64,000 bases of DNA, from contig NC_058342.1 of NCBI RefSeq assembly GCF_905475395.1, forward strand, positions 30,710,140-30,774,139, in the 5' to 3' direction. Positions 3,761 to 62,081 of this stretch are shown piece by piece. The notes beneath the pieces were generated by a model. The model saw nothing but the letters and a program-made list of their open reading frames with translations, did no database searches and had not been told where the DNA came from. Every line of letters begins with the position of its first letter. Position 1 is the first letter of the stretch. The translations under genes and the position numbers were made by a program. The DNA is from Chrysoperla carnea. Taxonomy: Eukaryota; Arthropoda; Insecta; Neuroptera; Chrysopidae.

Positions 3761-3832
3761 GACTTCGTGGCGCAACGGTAGTGCAACTGACTCCAGATCA
3801 GAAGGTTTCGTGTTCAAATCACGTCGGGGTCA
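3761..3832 (+). tRNA. tRNA-Trp (CCA), copy 3, diverged and possibly a pseudogene
   Basis: This is a 72-nt tRNA-Trp on plus with anticodon CCA retained and a long T run directly after it. It differs from copy 2 at five tRNA positions: 5 (C to T), 22 (C to T), 25 (G to A), 26 (T to A) and 48 (G to T). Position 26 breaks the first pair of the anticodon stem (A-A) and position 48 gives a T-T mismatch in the T stem. The other changes leave wobble pairs. The A and B boxes are mostly kept, so it may be transcribed, but its structure is weaker than that of copies 1 and 2. Confidence 0.85.
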
Positions 3833-8349: not shown

Positions 8350-9345
8350 CTGGTCCCGGAATTTAGCACAAAAATGATAGCTACCGAAAAACTGTCATTC
8401 TAGATGAAAAGAATGATCCAAAATAAGTGGGTTTCAAAAAACATTCCAATAAGATCGGATCAAATTTGCATGTGTTATGAAAAAAATCGAATTTTTTAAC
8501 TTTATGACGTCATCAGAATTCAAAAAATTTAATTTTGCTCTATCAAATCCAAATATTATCCAATTTTGATAAACCAAGTATGTAATCCTACTAAATTTGG
8601 GTTATACTTTTCAAATTTGTGATCAAAATTAACCTAGAACTGATTGGTTTCAAGAATGTGTAGTCCTGGTCCCGGAATTAAGCACATAAGTGATAGCTAG
8701 CGAAAAATTGACATCACAACTGAAAAGAATGACCAAAAATTAGTGGGTTTCAAAAAAAATTCCAATAAAATCGGATAAAATTTGCCTGTGCTACCAAAAA
8801 AATAGAATTTTTAACTTTATGACGTCATCAGAATCCAAAAAATTTAATTTTGCTCTATCAAATCCAAATATTATCCAATTTTGATAAACCAAGTATGTAA
8901 TCCTACTAAATTTGGGTTATACTTTTCAAATTTGTCATCAAAATTAACCTAGAACTGATGGATTTCAAGAATATACAGTCCTAGGCCTGGAATTAAGCAC
9001 ATAAGTGATAGCCAGCGAAAAATTGACGTCACAACAGAAAAGAATGACCCAAAATTAGTGAGTTTCAAAAAAAATTCCAATAAAATCGGATAAAATTTGC
9101 CTATGTGTTATCAAAAAAATCAAATTTTTTAACTTTATGACGAGTTGGGTTGGGTTGGGTTGGGTTGGGTTGAGTTGGGTTGAGTTGGGTTGGGTTGTCC
9201 TGGTCCCGGAATTTAGCACAAAAGTGATAGCTACTGAAAAACTGACATTATAGATGAAAAGAATGACCCAAAATAAGTGGGTTTCAACAAAAATTCCAAT
9301 ACGATCCGATCAAATTTGCATGTGTTGTGATAAAAACATTTTTTG
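8350..9345 (+). repeat. Satellite family B array (about 316-bp unit) with embedded pentamer run
   Basis: The landmark 'ggtcccggaatt' recurs at about 8352, 8669, 8985 (variant) and 9201, a spacing of about 316 bp for the first three. Each unit carries 'atgacgtcat' (a CRE-like palindrome), a 'tgtaatcctactaaatttgg' block and 'cctagaactgat'. The third unit is cut at 9143 by a pentamer run and a fourth partial unit follows. The same satellite occurs as five units in opposite orientation at 60499-62081. Confidence 0.9.
9143..9197 (+). repeat. (GGGTT)n pentamer run, 11 units
   Basis: About eleven head-to-tail GGGTT units lie here, two or three of them variant GAGTT. The run sits exactly where the satellite B unit is interrupted. 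It resembles a TTGGG-type telomere variant but is far too short and internal to be called a telomere. Confidence 0.9.
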
Positions 9346-16382: not shown

Positions 16383-16680
16383 TAAGGTTAGGTTATATTG
16401 GCTGTCCACGAAGGACACACTTAGGCTAGAGAGCCCATTGTGAAACAATATATGTGTTTTACCACCTTTCCGCTGAAATTTCATTTATCAGCTCCTCAAT
16501 TTCAGAGGCTGAGTGCACCTTCTTCATGAATATACCATGCACTACACCAACCCATCACAACTATTAATTAAATTAATTTTTAACTATTATTTCAACTATT
16601 AATTTTGGCGGGAATCGAACCCGCTACCTTAAGCATACCGCGGACGGAATTGGTTAAGCCTTATCCAACTGAGGGGTTCC
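16383..16680 (-). mobile_element. tRNA-derived SINE with CCTAA-type tail (SINE-T), copy 1
   Basis: On minus the tRNA-like head contains AACCAATTCC and the B box GGGTTCGATTCCCGCC. The body runs through 'gtgatgggttggtgtagtgc', 'ctctgaaattgaggagctga' and 'gtgtccttcgtggacagcc'. The 3' end is CAATATAACCTAACCTTACC. It matches 17382-17657 and 51239-51520. No clear target duplication is visible for this copy. The A-box region is mutated. Confidence 0.85.
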
Positions 16681-17214: not shown

Positions 17215-17381
17215 TTATTATTTACTTTTTTTTGTATGGCTTTAATGTCGTAATAAATAAATAAAATTACACTTTTGACTAGATTATGTTATCTTGCACA
17301 GTAAATTTATTCCAAAAACAAAAATTGGCAACTGGGTAGTCGCAATTATGTAATTTTCGAGAAACTATATACCCTACGTTA

Positions 17382-17657
17382 GGTTAGGTTAGGTAGGCTC
17401 CTATTAGCGCAGTTGGTTAAAGCGTAACCAATTCCGTCCCCGGTATTGAGGTAGTATGGTAGCGAGTTCGATTCCCGATGTCACAACAAAATTAATTTAA
17501 TTAATAAGTTGTGATGGGCTGGTGTAGTGCATGGTATATACATGAAGGAGGTGTACTCAGCCTCTGAAATTGAGGAGCTGACAAATTTTTATTTATGGTT
17601 TCACAATGGGCTCTATAGTCTAAGTGTGTCCTTCGTGGACAGCCAATATAACCTAAC
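17382..17657 (+). mobile_element. SINE-T copy 2, with TTAGG-type repeats also at its 5' end
   Basis: The A box (TTAGCGCAGTTGG, 17404) and B box (GAGTTCGATTCCC, about 17463) mark the tRNA-like head. The body matches the other two copies. The element is flanked by a 14-bp direct repeat, TATACCCTACGTTA at 17368-17381 and TATACCCTAAGTTA at 17658-17671 (one mismatch), interpreted as the target-site duplication. Between the left duplication and the tRNA head lies GGTTAGGTTAGGTAGG. The 3' end is CAATATAACCTAAC. Copies 1 and 3 lack the 5' pentamers. Confidence 0.9.
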
Positions 17658-17744
17658 TATACCCTAAGTTACTCCTGGTATGAACCCAACTACACCTTAT
17701 TCATCAAAATCAATTCAATATTTCCAAAAATTACCTAGCTACTT

Positions 17745-23231: not shown

Positions 23232-24125
23232 TATTATCCAAGTAAGTAACTCTTTTAGTTATTCGTAATATTTCTGAAGTTACTTTGGCCCAAATATTCC
23301 AAAAATTGCATCCATTTTTATGATAAACTTAAGTATGCCAAATAACGGGCAATTTTTGTGGATTCGAATTCCACTGCTATGGGGCTATTATGAAAACCAT
23401 AAATCAGATCGCATTTTTAACGACGGCAACGTTTTCGACAGGTCAAGATTAGCTTAAAAACAAGTTATTACCAAAATAGGAGATAAAAACGATTTTCGAA
23501 TTTCTACGATTTTTTTAAGGGGTACCCCTTTGAAAAAATTCGAAAAATCGAAAAACATTATTTGTTTCTGATAGTCATGAAAATCATTTTCTAAAGTCTT
23601 TTTGACCCAAATATTATAAAAATCGCATCCATTTGAATGGCCGACTTATTAATTTCAAAATATCACGACAGCCAATTTTTCTGTGTTCGAGTTTCGTTAC
23701 TATAGGACTGATATCTTACAAACCATAAATCTGAGCGCATTTTATCCAACGACATCGTTTTCGCCGTATCAAAATTAGCTTAAATCCAAGTTTTTGTCAA
23801 AATAGGAGACAAAAAAGATTTTTGAATTTCTTCGATTTTCTTAAGGGGTACCCCTTTGGAAAAATTCGAAAAATCGAAAAAAAATATTTGCTTCGGATAG
23901 TCATGAAAATCATTTTTTAAGGTCATTTTGACCCAAATATTACAAAAATCGCATCCATTTGAATTCCCGACTTATGAATTTCAAAATATCACGACAACCA
24001 ATTTTTCTGGGTTCGAGTTTCGTTACTATAGGACTGATATCTTGAAAACCATAAATTTTAAAACATTTTATCTAACGAATTTTTGTACCTTCACTCATAT
24101 TTTTGTATTTAATTTGACCGAATAA
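23232..24125. repeat. Satellite family E-like array, about 3 diverged units
   Basis: The palindrome AGGGGTACCCCTTT occurs at about 23519 and 23845. 'tttttgacccaaatatta' recurs at about 23604 and 23926, and 'aggactgatatctt' at 23705 and 24030, a period of about 322-326 bp. This matches the organisation of 55981-57612 but with much divergence. The open frame 23928-24125 is within it. Confidence 0.75.
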
Positions 24126-32156: not shown

Positions 32157-32213
32157 CCGTAGACAATTTACTCATCGTTTAAAACACACACAAAAACAAA
32201 AAACAAAATAAAA

Positions 32214-32276
32214 ATGGATTTCAAAAAATTCGATTGTGGATTTTTTCAATCGTATTTGTGTCTCAGTGGTTATTAA
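32214..32276 (+). CDS. uORF 3 (20 codons)
   Basis: The AAAATGG context is strong (A at -3, G at +4). It stops at TAA 32274-32276, 34 nt before the main ATG, which is short for efficient reinitiation. It would be expected to dampen translation of the main frame if it is in the mRNA. Confidence 0.35.
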   Translation: MDFKKFDCGFFQSYLCLSGY

Positions 32277-32310
32277 AAAATTATCCATTGACGACAGAAA
32301 TACCCGAATT

Positions 32311-33331
32311 ATGGCTGTGTACAGAAACACTTATGGTCGCCGTAGGAATGTAGGATTTCGAACGTGGTGTATTGGAATTATGATCTCGTCTTTATATCTA
32401 ATGTCCAGTTGCAGTTGCATGGCAACTGGCTTACATCATAATCGACATAATCATCATGTCACAAGTGATAAAACGGATAGTGTAAAAACGTTATGGTCAC
32501 GACCAAAAGTAGTGCCTATAATTCATAAGTCTGATAAGTTAGGAATTTCTAGAAGAACATTACGAAATATTCGTATACATAGTGAATATTTATTAAAATC
32601 AAAAACTAGTCATGTTAAAGATTATCCGAACGATGATCCATACGGTGGATTTGATTCCCGTGATTATGAATCAGAGGATCCACGTCCGCTGATTGGTTTT
32701 AACGATGATGATTTTACGGAACATCAATTAGAGAAATCATTATTGGATCGGGAGCATACAAGCAATCGACCGGATGTTAAATGTGATGATGATAATAAAC
32801 CAAAAAAATCAAATCCGCCGCAACATTTTAATATGGTCCCGATTAAGAAATTTACACCCCCGCAACAACAGCAAATCCCCTCATTCTCTCATTGTCCCAC
32901 ATGTTACGCGCATTATTTAAATCATGAAAAAACTTTTATTGATCCAAATAACAAAAATAAAATTGATAGCGAGAGTATCCGATTAGAGGCAATTAAACAG
33001 CAAATTTTAAATAAATTAGGTTTAAAACATCGACCAATTATACGAAAAAAATTACCTAGAGAGATTGTGTTACAGAGTTTGTACAGGGCCGAAGAGGACA
33101 ATTTAGAATTTTTTAATGATGAAAAACATAAAAGTATGCCTTCACGTGCGGGTGCAGGCCTTAATTTTAATAAACCAATTAAAACGAATGATTTAAACGA
33201 TAAATATGAGGAGTTTAGTTCGACAACGGGTGAAAATTTACCGACAACTAGTTCGACATCGTATTCGACAAATGAAGTACAAGATGATTTTTATGCACGG
33301 ACATCGGAGATTATTGTTTTTGGTGATGCCG
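32311..33331 (+). CDS. First coding exon of an activin/inhibin-beta-like TGF-beta precursor (partial)
   Basis: This is a 340-codon exon plus one base, ending at the consensus donor G|GTAAGT (intron from 33332, phase 1). The start chosen is the ATG at 32311 (A at -3, G at +4); the open frame extends upstream but has no earlier ATG. Residues 19-37 form a hydrophobic stretch (WCIGIMISSLYLMSSCSC) after a basic segment (GRRR, 9-12), consistent with a signal peptide with a long n-region. There follow a basic/acidic low-complexity prodomain, a CPTC motif at 195-198, the amphipathic helix IRLEAIKQQILNKLGLKHRP at 223-242, LPREIVLQSLY, and DDFYARTSEIIVF at 325-337. The order CxxC, 'IKxxIL.KL.LK.RP' and 'TSEII.F' is that of activin/inhibin-beta and Drosophila Activin-beta/dawdle-type propeptides. 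The rest of the propeptide, the furin site and the cysteine-knot ligand are not here and must be on later exons. The protein would be a secreted growth-factor precursor. The assignment to an activin-type rather than a myostatin-type ligand is inference. Confidence 0.8.
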
Positions 33332-35884
33332 GTAAGTTTTTCACAAAAGTTCTTTTATCGTTTGTATCAAATTTTTAATTAAAGGGAAGTTGCGGTTTCC
33401 TGTACGACAAATTTTGGTGCTTAATTCTTTTGGAATTCTTTGCGTGCCAAAAACATGAGTAAATTTTTCACGCTGTATATAAAAAAAGATTTTCGAGATC
33501 ATTTTCTATTTGCTGATCTTGACCGAATTGGTTTGGATCAGGAAATTTTGACAAGTGTTTTCTTTTCGAAATTATTTAGAGTTTTCCTTTTATTGGATCG
33601 TTATTAAAATGGCATTTCTGATAATGCCATTCATTCCGAAAACCAAGCAAGACGTCGAAAATTTTTGCTCGAAAAGTTTTTTGGGATTTCATTGAATTTC
33701 AAAAGAATTATCACTAAAATTTGCTATAATCTACACTGAAACTTAAAATACTAGCATTTGAAGATTGCAGGGTACTTGAAAGGTGTGTACAATGCTCTAT
33801 TATCATCTCAAAATAAGTAATTTAGCTAAATTACTTTGCCAAGTCTATAAGGTTGCTTCATTTGGGTTCAGTTCAGTTTTAAAATAAATGTTTTATTTCT
33901 CGTGGATCGAGGGGTTTCCAATCAAGATTGCAGATAAGTATAAGAATTTTATAAACTAATTCTTATGGTTCCGAAATTAGCAACTTAAATCATTGGCTTT
34001 GACTTAAAATAAAAAATTAAGTTACAAAAAATTAGGTTAAATTATTCCAAAGTTTCTTTTAATGAAAAGTTGTTTACAGGGTGATTTTAAAAATAGTTCC
34101 CATCCTTATATTTCAAAAATGGATTGGAAATCATAAAGCGCGAAAGCACATTAAGCTATGTCTGTAAGAGCCTGAAGAAGCTATAAATTATTTAGCGAAA
34201 CGTTGCAATTGAAGGTTTTTTTATCTTTTGTTGATCATATTCGAAATCAGCGATCTAAAAACCTTCAGAAAACACTGCGCCTACTCATACCGGTGTTTTC
34301 TTCCTACGAAACCTCCTATCCCGCTCAGGGTAAAATGATCCTTCGTTGTTTAAAGTGAACTATTAAAGCCATCTAGTATATTTATCGATAGATGGCTTCC
34401 ACATGATCAAATTAATCGTTCAGTAAATACTTGGCGATTTTATTTATTTTGTGTATCGTAGCAAAAATATTAATTTTATTGCTTATGATGTAAAATTTCT
34501 TTTTTGTGTTATTTTTCGCCGGTTGATTGTTTTACTCTTGCCTTCTGTTGACTTTTAATAATATCATAACACATTTTGATAGGCGTATAATAAATTTTAA
34601 GGTCAGTTTTTATGACGATATTCAAATATGTCGTTATAGGTAAAATGATCCCCTTTATATACGTTAAAAATGATCCCTATTTGTGTATAAAATAATAATA
34701 ACTAAAATTATCTCCCACCGTGTGAACTTTTTGGTAAAAAATGCGATGGGATCATTTTACCCACAAGGTCAGTATAACGATCCTTTTTGAGAAATGTTGA
34801 ATAGTTCAAAAAATTTGAACCAAAAATTATTTCCACGTTATACATATCTCAAACAGTTTGGCTATAAATTACATTTTTTCTTTGGGGGATCATTATAGGA
34901 CAACTTCCTCTAATCGTGAAAGAGCATTGTAAACATCTTTTATGCACACCTTTTTTATTTTTAAGAAAACATAATTGGTATTTTTATTTAAAAATCGATT
35001 TAAATCACGTTCAACGTGAATCTGATCAATTTAACTTCCAATAGTAGAGAAAGTCTACATGGTACTGTTGGTTTGCATGGTAATATTTCCATAAGAGAAT
35101 TTCGTTGTAGCGATTTCAAACAATATTTCGAATACAAAATTTTCTAGCTTAAACTATTTTTTCGAATTTTAATGCTAGTTCTAACAGGATTTTTATGTTC
35201 TCAAAATTCTATGTTATTAAAAGTTTTACATAATTTTCTTGCTAAATAGTTTTGCACAGCACTTGCATCAAACAAAAATTTTCTTAGAAAGTTAAATTTT
35301 TAATTGTAAAAATTCCAAGGTTCTGTTAAAATGTCATTCTTGAGTATTGATTAACTGTCTGAAATTTTTTCTTAGAACTTATTTTTGAATTGCTTTAAAA
35401 TTTTGAATTATTTATAATAATAAGAATATTCGATATTTCACGAGGTACGTTCACTACCCACACCCTACCTCGACCTCGGCGAAGGTAGAATGTTGACTAG
35501 CTTCGCCTCGGACGAAGTATAATTTTTACTATCGCTAATTATATCGCTCGATAATTATAAAATCGCTACGTTAACCATAAGTTGTAGCAAAAAAATTTTG
35601 CTAAAAATCGAGTTTCTAAGTTTGTTCTTGAAAACGAATTTAGTTTTGTGTAAGGTCTGGGAATATTTAAATTATACACGAGTATTAACAGAGGTTTTAA
35701 TGGATTAAAATGACGGGACCTGGCAATTGCTATCACACGCAAAATTTTCTCTAATCATAGATTTATGATTATTCATAAAATCAATCATCGCTCAGTTAGT
35801 CTGAATTTAGCCACCCGACATAAAGTAATCGTTAAAATTTAATTTTTTGATGTATTAAACAGAATGACAATATATTTCGTTTTT
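33332..35884 (+). other. Start of a long intron; AT-rich, no further exon recognised
   Basis: The intron begins GTAAGTTTTT. No TGF-beta propeptide or ligand exon was recognised on plus from here to 64000, although exons under about 60 codons could be missed. Positions 34325-34895 contain several copies of GGTAAAATGATCC and its complement GGATCATTTTACC (for example 34330, 34637, 34747), so a short unclassified repeat may be present. Confidence 0.5.
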
Positions 35885-51227: not shown

Positions 51228-51238
51228 TATCTCATTGT

Positions 51239-51520
51239 CACCCTATTAGCTCAGTTGGTTAAGGCGTAACCAATTCCAGTATGCTTAGGGTATCGAGTTC
51301 GATTCCCGCCATCGTAACAAAATTAATTTAATTGGTAGTTGTGATGGACTGGTGTAGTGCATGGTATATGCATCAAGGAGGTGAACTCAGCCTCTGAAAT
51401 TGAGGAGCTGATAAATGAAATTATCAGCGGAAAGGTGGTAAAACACATATATGGTATCACAATGGGCTCTATAGATCTAAGTGTGTCCTTCGTGGACAGC
51501 CAATATAACCTAACCTAACC
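51239..51520 (+). mobile_element. SINE-T copy 3, intact with target-site duplication
   Basis: The A box TTAGCTCAGTTGG (51246) and B box GAGTTCGATTCCCGCC are the best preserved of the three copies. The body is complete. The tail is CAATATAACCTAACCTAACC. A perfect 11-bp direct repeat TATCTCATTGT flanks it (51228-51238 and 51521-51531), showing insertion as a unit and fixing the element's end inside the CCTAA run. Confidence 0.95.
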
Positions 51521-51531
51521 TATCTCATTGT

Positions 51532-55965: not shown

Positions 55966-55980
55966 ATTTTGAAAATGAAG

Positions 55981-57612
55981 TTTTGCCCATGATACTCGCT
56001 GACATTGTAACTTTCTATAGGTCCAATCATTAAATTAACCTGATTTTTATACTTTTTGGATTAAAATTACCCCATCCACCGAGTTTCATCAAATTCCAAA
56101 AAATTTTTTTTTTTGCGTTTTTCTCGATTTTTTCAAAGGGGTACCCCTTAAGAAAATTCCAAAAAAATCGAAAATTTTTTTCATCTCCGATATCGATGAA
56201 ACTCAGTATATAAGGTAATTTTAACCCAAAAAATCCAAAAATAGGGTTTATTTAATTATTGGATGCGTGGCTTTTGAGATATAATCCAAAATTGGACACA
56301 AAGAGCGATTTTCACAGAAACTATTGATCCAATCGATACAAACACCCGATTTTTGTATTTTTTGGGTCAAAATTACCTTATATACTGAGTTTTATCGAAA
56401 TCCGAAACAATAATTTTTTCCCGATTTTTTCGATTTTTTCAAAGTTTTGCCCATGATACTCGCTGACATTGTAACTTTCTATAGGTCCAATCATTAAATT
56501 AACCTGATTTTTATACTTTTTGGATTAAAATTACCCCATCCACCGAGTTTCATCAAATTCCAAAAAATTTTTTTTTTTGCGTTTTTCTCGATTTTTTCAA
56601 AGGGACCCCTTAAGAAAATTCCAAAAAAATCGAAAATTTTTTTCATCTCCGATATCGATGAAACTCAGTATATAAGGTAATTTTAACCCAAAAAATCCAA
56701 AAATAGGGTTTATTTAATTATTGGATGCGTGGCTTTTGAGATATAATCCAAAATTGGACACAAAGAGCGATTTTCACAGAAACTATTGATCCAATCGATA
56801 CAAACACCCGATTTTTGTATTTTTTGGGTCAAAATTACCTTATATACTGAGTTTTATCGAAATCCGAAACAATAATTTTTTCCCGATTTTTTCGATTTTT
56901 TCAAAGGGGTACCCCTTAAAAAAATTGCAAAAAATCGAAAATTTTTTTTTACCTCCAATTTCGATGAAACTCAGTATATAAGGTAATTTTGACCCAAAAA
57001 ATCCAAAAATAGGGTTTATTTAATTATTGGATGCGTGGCTTTTGAGATATAATCCAAAATTGGACACAAAGAGCGATTTTCACAGGAACTATTGATCCAA
57101 TCGATACAAACACAAGATTTTTGTATTTTTTGGGTCAAAATTACCTTATATACAGAGTTTTATCGAAATCCGAAACAATAATTTTTTCCCGATTTTTCCT
57201 ATTTTTTCTAAGGGATACCCCTTACAAAAATTTAAAAAAATCGAAAAATTTTTTTACCTCCAATTTCGATAAAACTCAGTATATAAGGTAATTTTGACCC
57301 AAAAAGTACAAAAATCGGGTACATTTGTTGACTGGTCGAATAGTTTTTGCGATACGAGCTAAAATCGATCCAAATATTGCGATATCTCAGAAACTCTGTA
57401 TCCAATCATTAAATTAACCGAATTTTTATACTTTTTGGATCAAAATTACCCTATCCACCGAGTTTCATCAAATTCCAAAACAAAATTTTTTTTTCCATTT
57501 TTTCGATTTTTCCGAAGCGGTACCCCTTAAAAAATTGCAAAAAATCTAGAAATTTTTTTCATCTCCAATTTCGATAAAACTTAGTATATAAGGTAATTTT
57601 GACCCAAAAAGT
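55981..57612. repeat. Satellite family E array with a 464-bp recent duplication
   Basis: The palindrome GGGGTACCCC (or variants) recurs at about 56140, 56600, 56906, 57213 and 57519; the last four are spaced about 306 bp. Blocks 'ctcagtatataaggtaattt' and 'ttggatgcgtggcttttgag' recur with it. Positions 55981-56444 are repeated almost exactly at 56445-56906, the only clear difference being GGGGTACCCC against GGGACCCC. A diverged relative is at 23232-24125. Non-coding. Confidence 0.93.
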
Positions 57613-60349: not shown

Positions 60350-60498
60350 GTACTGGTCCGTTACCAGGGCGTGGCAAAAGAGGCACCCCCCACTGGCGCA
60401 TAAGAAATAGAGGCGCAAAACAAAACGTATGTTTTTGTTTAAAATAATACGTAAAAGTTACTAAAGAATAATGTAAAAGGCGCTCATTAATTTACATA
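60350..60498. other. Spacer upstream of the candidate exon
   Basis: Positions 60350-60418 keep the same minus frame open. Beyond this the sequence is AT-rich up to the satellite. Confidence 0.3.
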
Positions 60499-62081
60499 AA
60501 GTTAAAGAATTCGATATTTTTGATGACACAGGCAAATTTTATCCGATTTTATTAGAATTTTTTTTGAAACCCACTTATTTTGGGTCATTCTTTTCAGTTG
60601 TGATGTCAATTTTTCGCTAGCTATCACTAATGTGCTTAATTCCAGGACCAGGACTGCACATTCTTGAAACCCATCAGTTCTAGGTTAATTTTGATGCCAA
60701 ATTTGAAAAGTATAACCCAAATTTAGTAGGATTACATACTTGGTTTATCAAAATTGAATCAAGTTTGAATGTGATAGAGCAAATTAAATTTTTTGGATTT
60801 TGATGACGTCATAAAGTTCAAAAATTCGATTTTTTTGATGACACAGGCAAATTTTATCCGATTTTATTGGAATTTTTTTTGAAATCCACTAATTTTGGGT
60901 CATTCTTTTCAGTTGTGATGTCAATTTTTCGCTAGCTATCACTTATGTGCTTAATTCCGGGACCAGGACTGCACATTCTTGAAACCCATCAGTTCTAGGT
61001 TAATTTTGATGCCAAATTTGAAAATTATGACCCGAATTTAGTAGGATTACATACTTGGTTTATCAAAATTGGATAAAATTTGGATGTGATAGAGCAAAAT
61101 TAAATTTTTGAATTCTGATGACGTCATAAAGTTCAAAAATTCGATTTTTTTGATGACACAGGCAAATTTTATCCGATTTTGTTGGAATTTTTTTTGAAAC
61201 CCTCTAATTTTGGGTCATTCTTTTCAGTTGTGATGTCAATTGTTCGCTAGCTATCACTTATGTGCTTAATTCCGGGACCAGAACTGCACATTCTTGAAAC
61301 CCATCAGTTCTAGGTTAATTTTGATGACAAATTTGAAAAGTATAACCCAAATTTAGTAGGATTACATACTTGGTTTATCAAAATTGGATAATATTTGAAT
61401 GTGATAGAGCAAAATTAAATTTTTTGGATTCTCATGACGTCATAAAGTTAAAAAATTCGATTTTTTTGATAACACAGGCAAATTTGATCCGATCTTATTG
61501 GAATTTTTTTTGAAACCCACTAATTTTGGGACATTCTTTTCAGCTGCGATGTCAGTTTTTCGCTAGCTATCACTTACATGCTTAATTCTGGCACCAAGTC
61601 TCCACATTATTGAAACCTATTAGAGCTAGGTCAATTTTGATGACAAATTTAAAAAGTATGACCCGAATTTAGTAGGATTACATACTTGGTTTATCAAAAT
61701 TGGATAAAATTTGGATGTGATAGAGCAAAATTAAATTTTTTGAATTCTGATGACGTCATAAAGTTCAAAAATTCGATTTTTTTGATGACACAGGCAAACT
61801 TTATCCGATTTCATTGAAATTTTTTTTGAAACCCACTAATTTTGGGTCATTCTTTTAAGCTGTGATGTCAATTTTTCGCTAGCTATCACTTATGTGCTTA
61901 ATTCCGGGACCAGGACTGCACATTCTTGAAACCCATCAGTTCTAGGTTAATTTTGATGCCAAATTTGAAAATTATAACCCAAGTTTAGTAGGATTACATA
62001 CTTGGTTTATCAAAATTGAATAAAATTTGGATTTGATAGAGCAAAATTAATTTTTTTGGATTCTGATGACGTCATAAAGTA
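60499..62081 (-). repeat. Satellite family B array, five units of 315-316 bp
   Basis: The landmark 'gtgcttaattccggg' recurs at about 60636, 60951, 61266, 61582 and 61898, intervals of 315, 315, 316 and 316 bp. Each unit has TGACGTCAT, 'gtaggattacatacttggtt' and 'cccatcagttctaggttaat'. Orientation is opposite to 8350-9345. It starts and ends at the same unit phase ('tcataaagt'), giving five whole units. Unit four (about 61437-61750) is the most diverged. Confidence 0.95.

What the first reader, a model, noticed from the sequence alone, without database searches (positions are those of the whole stretch)
51228..51531. SINE whose 3' tail is CCTAA telomere-type repeat
The copy at 51239-51520 has a perfect 11-bp target duplication, so its true end is known and lies inside TAACCTAACCTAACC. 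The other two copies (16383-16680, 17382-17657) end in the same CAATATAACCTAAC. Most SINEs end in A-rich or simple tails copied from their partner LINE. A tail equal to the insect telomere pentamer suggests either a partner related to telomere-associated LINEs (SART/TRAS type, established in Bombyx) or priming on telomeric sequence.
Basis: partly seen in the sequence, partly recalled or inferred. Interest (0 to 1): 0.72.

Follow-up and report, generated by a model that had tools for sequence, protein, structure and literature searches.

The report
SINE family with telomere-like CCTAA tail
A short, abundant jumping-gene family ends in a variable run of the same five letters found in insect telomeres, most likely because it borrows the copying enzyme of a longer element with that ending, not because it targets chromosome ends.

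Summary
The copy at 51239-51520 is a SINE with exact 11-bp target duplications and a (TAACC)3 end. It belongs to a large interspersed family: an exact 3'-end 23-mer occurs 1,452 times in the 559-Mb genome, reversed control 0. Duplications of 9 bp or more were found in 25 of 60 copies, against 0.9% in mismatched pairs. Degenerate LINE-like 3' ends share 39-51 aligned columns with the SINE and the CCTAA tail in three of four aligned (two independent). The best reading is an ordinary SINE/LINE pair with a slippage-made pentamer tail. A telomere link is not supported: SART1 ends in poly(A) (PMC3747384, passages), target sites are ordinary, the first 100 listed copies do not crowd the start of C1, and 9 readable chromosome ends showed no TTAGG array. 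The LINE's reverse transcriptase and clade were not found, because genome searches stopped answering.

The parts
51228..51238 (.). 5' target-site duplication TATCTCATTGT
   Evidence: exact 11-bp match to 51521-51531
51239..51520 (+). SINE copy
   Evidence: 40 places scored at 89-100% identity, one of them this copy itself; 93.6% to the family consensus
51247..51258 (+). A-box-like TAGCTCAGTTGG
   Evidence: read directly; the box consensus is recalled. ARAGORN found no tRNA in the family consensus
51296..51306 (+). B-box-like AGTTCGATTCC
   Evidence: read directly; the box consensus is recalled
51454..51518 (+). 3' region similar to a LINE-like 3' end
   Evidence: blastn 79% over 67 bp to L144, tail included; the tail-free alignments used the family consensus
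51485..51499 (+). possible stem-loop GTCC-TTCGT-GGAC followed by AG
   Evidence: exact in all three window copies; GTCC and GGAC kept around another loop in L138, ATCC/GGAC in L144. The minimum-energy folds of the SINE and of its last 70 bases do not form it
51506..51520 (+). tail (TAACC)3
   Evidence: tail length varies between copies
51521..51531 (.). 3' target-site duplication TATCTCATTGT
17368..17376 (.). 5' target-site duplication TATACCCTA of the second copy
17379..17393 (+). inverted (TTAGG)3 at the 5' end of the second copy, inside its target duplications
17394..17657 (+). second SINE copy, short tail TAACCTAAC
   Evidence: 82.7% to consensus
17658..17666 (.). 3' target-site duplication TATACCCTA
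16383..16680 (-). third SINE copy, tail TAACCTAACCTTACC, no clear target duplication
   Evidence: 89.1% to consensus

Best explanation
This is a SINE family with a tRNA-like (A/B box) head. Its last ~50 bp plus its CCTAA tail resemble the 3' end of a LINE-like element in the same genome. A LINE reverse transcriptase probably recognises that shared 3' end in the SINE RNA, nicks ordinary target DNA and starts copying in the (CCUAA)n tail. Slippage on the repeat would give tails of different length. The shared 3' end, the target duplications next to the tail, 5'-truncated copies and tail-length variation are shown here. That the shared end belongs to an RT-encoding LINE, recognition by it, and slippage as the cause are inferred. 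The match to the insect telomere pentamer is then a property of the LINE's 3' end, not a sign of telomere targeting.
For: The family is large and dispersed: 1,452 exact 23-mer hits, 0 in the reversed control; the 40 scored places lie on C1-C6. Exact flanking duplications of 9 bp or more occur in 25 of 60 copies with a recognisable head, against 0.9% of 1,200 mismatched pairs. 5'-truncated copies with repeats at both ends exist: L137 (14 bp) and L142 (10 bp) (no control was run for these). Tail units in 69 copies: 0 x1, 1 x7, 2 x5, 3 x26, 4 x24, 5 x4, 8 x1, 10 x1, one substitution allowed per unit. LINE-like ends L144, L138 and L151 align to the tail-less SINE consensus with scores 37, 35 and 44; none of 500 order-1 Markov resamples each reached them (maxima 25, 30, 28). 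Upstream of its 3' end L144 keeps an open remnant with HLLCHCPA, which I recognise from memory as LINE-type. Precedent: UnaL2 ends in TGTAA repeats, likely involved in template slippage (PMC3747384, passages).
Against: No reverse transcriptase was linked to this 3' end. The LINE-like copies are short and degenerate. L138 and L144 are copies of one duplicated locus (94.7%), so only two cases are independent. The fourth aligned end, L166, was not above chance (3 of 500 resamples reached it) and lacks the tail. L146 matches the coding part only and lacks this 3' end. Pfam found no domain in the L144 and L151 remnants. ARAGORN found no tRNA in the consensus. Selection is not neutral: the query includes the tail, and the pattern includes TAAC. 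Tail length could also have changed after insertion.
Confidence: 0.78

Rival explanations
1. The partner LINE is an R1-clade relative of the telomere-specific SART/TRAS elements, and the tail is a relic of telomere-targeted insertion.
For: The tail equals the ancestral insect telomere pentamer (motif from PMC8977481, passages). A LINE-like 3' end with the same tail exists.
Against: SART1 ends in poly(A) (PMC3747384, passages). Listed targets are ordinary sequence. No excess toward the start of C1 in the first 100 listed copies. No TTAGG array at 9 readable chromosome ends.
Confidence: 0.1
2. Nicked or broken DNA ends are extended with TTAGG by telomerase, and the SINE RNA is then primed on that telomeric sequence; the tail is telomerase product, not copied from the SINE RNA.
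For: In the window's second copy the top strand at the 5' junction also carries (TTAGG)3 inside the target duplications, as if both 3'-OH ends had been extended.
Against: Among 60 headed copies only the window copy W17k and L147 have TTAGG within 25 bp upstream, and in L147 it overlaps the target duplication TAGGTAAGAAA. The LINE-like elements share the tail and about 50 bp before it, which needs no telomerase.
Confidence: 0.04
3. The pentamer run is a short fixed 3' end that changed length only by replication slippage after insertion.
For: Most copies have 3-4 units (50 of 69).
Against: Copies 96-98% identical to the consensus differ in tail (3, 4 and 10 units in L018, L014, L020), and the duplication follows TAACC directly in only 12 of 25. 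Neither observation excludes change after insertion.
Confidence: 0.08

Closest known systems
SINE/LINE pairs of the stringent type with repeated tails, e.g. eel UnaSINE1/UnaL2 (TGTAA repeats)
   Same: 3' end shared between SINE and LINE, short tandem-repeat tail; slippage is the proposed cause (PMC3747384, passages; the name UnaSINE1 is recalled).
   Different: Different repeat unit (CCTAA, equal to the insect telomere motif). Activity and the LINE's clade are not shown here.
Telomere-specific LINEs SART/TRAS of Bombyx mori
   Same: The TTAGG/CCTAA sequence is involved in both.
   Different: In SART/TRAS it is the target (PMC4700185, passages), and SART1 itself ends in poly(A) (PMC3747384, passages). 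Here it is the element's own tail, and the listed targets are ordinary DNA.
Aedes aegypti SINE with changing 3' tandem-repeat tails (Tu et al. 2004)
   Same: Slippage retrotransposition of a tandem-repeat tail, judged by its title only, seen in the reference list of PMC3747384.
   Different: Paper not read; its repeat unit and partner were not compared.

Membership tests
tRNA-derived SINE | internal Pol III A and B boxes | tested here: inconclusive
   Box-like words in the window copy and consensus; ARAGORN found no tRNA in the consensus; transcription not testable
tRNA-derived SINE | short, non-coding, many dispersed copies | tested here: met
   about 274 bp before the tail in the consensus, 1,452 exact 23-mer hits
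tRNA-derived SINE | target-site duplications from target-primed reverse transcription | tested here: met
   25 of 60 with 9 bp or more against 0.9% of mismatched pairs
Stringent-type SINE/LINE pair | 3' end shared with a LINE of the same genome | tested here: met
   3 of 4 LINE-like ends above all 500 resamples; two of the three are copies of one locus, and 'LINE' rests on a recalled motif
Stringent-type SINE/LINE pair | the LINE encodes a reverse transcriptase | tested here: inconclusive
   no Pfam domain in the two remnants scanned; genome searches for RVT_1 and for LINE copies (from then on) not answered
Stringent-type SINE/LINE pair | variable tandem-repeat tail | tested here: met
SART/TRAS telomere-specific LINE machinery | insertion into TTAGG arrays | tested here: not met
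   none of the 25 long duplications listed is a telomeric array
SART/TRAS telomere-specific LINE machinery | R1-clade reverse transcriptase | not tested
   no reverse transcriptase recovered for this 3' end

The most novel reading that the evidence does not exclude
A LINE/SINE system whose reverse transcriptase starts by copying CCUAA repeats and so adds TTAGG repeats to a DNA 3' end, which is chemically what telomerase does. It has scattered short telomeric repeats through the genome and could extend an exposed chromosome end. The second window copy, with TTAGG at one junction and CCTAA at the other inside one target duplication, would be a trace of such end extension.
Probability: 0.08. Interest if true: 0.8.

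Novelty: new member of a known kind. Interest (0 to 1): 0.42.

Why it matters
It gives a retrotransposon origin for many short interstitial telomere-like repeats in what looks like an insect genome, which could mislead surveys that detect telomere motifs from reads or by hybridisation (inference). It also offers a test of whether LINE-type slippage on a CCUAA template can make telomeric DNA.

Tried and rejected
Telomere enrichment: a hand count over the first 100 listed copies (C1, 0-37.7 Mb) shows no rise toward the start. This covers one arm of one chromosome only.

Fixed internal pentamers without length variation: rejected.

Viral contigs: the 26-base 3' end gave 0 matches. A 15-base core gave 68, probably chance given the short word; these loci were not examined.

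Species: not identified. One contig (C7) starts with histone genes, H1, H2A and H2B by my reading, which did not settle it. An aphid was considered from memory and is untested.

Literature: nine searches. In what was listed (titles and abstract starts; one search listed 20 of 22) I saw no paper on a CCTAA-tailed SINE. I read passages of four papers only (PMC2887409, PMC4700185, PMC3747384, PMC8977481).

One search lost the three window copies to a filter error, so its n is 69 of 72. One search covered only 25 bp upstream, so the second window copy's 9-bp duplication is not among its 25.

Full report
What was checked. The window lies at C6:30710140-30774139 of a 559-Mb genome in 337 contigs. 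The flagged copy at 51239-51520 has exact 11-bp duplications and ends in (TAACC)3. CCTAACCTAAC with up to one mismatch occurs 5 times in the window, expected 0.69, at the ends of the three SINE copies.

The family. A DNA search gave 2,235 first-look candidates, of which 40 were scored, at 89-100% identity, on C1 to C6. The exact 23-mer CCTTCGTGGACAGCCAATATAAC occurs 703 times forward and 749 reverse, with 0 for the reversed control. I read 72 copies: 3 in the window, the other 39 of the 40, and 30 of the 1,452. A script took 59 of the 72 as full length; their aligned parts are 70-98% identical to the consensus. At least two of the 59 (L138, L144) aligned over only 49 bp and carry an internal deletion.

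The tail. Tail units in 69 of the 72: 0 x1, 1 x7, 2 x5, 3 x26, 4 x24, 5 x4, 8 x1, 10 x1. The low counts are partly parser limits: L012, scored 0, reads ATACCTAACCTAACC. The window copies, lost to a script filter there, have 3, about 2 and 3 units. Some tails are degenerate, e.g. L147, ATAACCTAAAATAGCC. Selection is not neutral: one search used the tail in its query and the pattern includes TAAC.

Insertion mode. Exact duplications of 9 bp or more, one side within 25 bp of the head and the other within 70 bp after the core, were found in 25 of 60 headed copies, against 0.9% of 1,200 mismatched pairs. Their first base is T in 14 of 25 (TA in 9), suggestive of pairing with the tail but weak in an AT-rich genome. 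Truncated copies carry repeats too (L137 14 bp, L142 10 bp, no control). These are hallmarks of target-primed reverse transcription (established knowledge).

The partner. In 240,543 bases of held sequence, runs of two or more perfect CCTAA units without the SINE core within 60 bp upstream occurred four times: the inverted array in the window's second copy, L138, L144 and L151. The last three are LINE-like 3' ends. L144 carries an open remnant with HLLCHCPA, a C-terminal LINE motif by my recollection. Blast also linked L146 and L166 to the family, but L146 lacks this 3' end and L166 lacks the tail. Tail-less alignments to the SINE consensus gave 37 (L144), 44 (L151) and 35 (L138), above all 500 resamples each, over 39-51 columns; L166 gave 28, reached by 3 of 500. 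L138 and L144 are copies of one locus, so there are two independent cases. Pfam found nothing in the L144 and L151 remnants. A GTCC/GGAC pair of arms is kept around a different loop in L138 (ATCC in L144), as a recognised stem-loop would be. It is lost in L151, and the predicted folds of the SINE do not form it, so this is weak.

Telomere question. Four-kilobase ends were taken for six chromosome starts and five chromosome ends. The starts of C2 and C4 read N. The 9 readable ends held 0 to 2 TTAGG and 0 to 6 CCTAA words each, with no period-5 array. The far end of C5 was not obtained. The end of C1 stops inside a long open LINE frame with endonuclease, RT and RNase H domains. The first 100 listed copies fall 22, 26, 23 and 29 per 0-10, 10-20, 20-30 and 30-37.7 Mb of C1 (hand count). 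SART1 ends in poly(A), and UnaL2 in TGTAA repeats likely involved in slippage (PMC3747384, passages). TRAS and SART use telomeric repeats as target (PMC4700185, passages).

An oddity. The second window copy has an inverted (TTAGG)3 between its 5' duplication and its head (17379-17393). Of 60 headed copies only this one and L147 have TTAGG within 25 bp upstream, and in L147 it overlaps the target duplication. Template switching to the cDNA tail, or end extension, could do this; I cannot decide.

Verdict. The ordinary explanation, a SINE/LINE pair with a slippage tail, fits best. The telomeric reading is weakened but not closed, because the partner's reverse transcriptase was not recovered.

Noticed in passing
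17379-17393: Inverted (TTAGG)3 at the 5' end of the second SINE copy, inside its 9-bp target duplication.
   Followed up: partly
L037:487-3999 (C1:139976365-139979877): Chromosome C1 ends inside an open 1171-aa LINE frame with endonuclease, RT and RNase H domains. It could be a telomeric retrotransposon or just the end of the assembly.
   Followed up: partly
8350-9142, 23393-24078, 55978-57610, 60495-62080: Several tandem satellites with periods of about 306-462 bp in one 64-kb window. The 8350 and 60495 arrays look like the same satellite in opposite orientation, by eye.
   Followed up: no
1099-1170, 2656-2727, 3761-3832: Three tRNA-Trp genes (anticodon CCA) within 3 kb, two on the minus and one on the plus strand.
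   Followed up: no
32212-33378: 388-aa open frame with a weak TGF-beta propeptide match below the Pfam cut-off.
   Followed up: no
L138 and L144 (C1 about 1.06 and 2.01 Mb): A duplicated locus carrying a SINE with an internal deletion beside a LINE-like 3' end; L144 also holds a zinc-finger-like open frame (by reading).
   Followed up: partly
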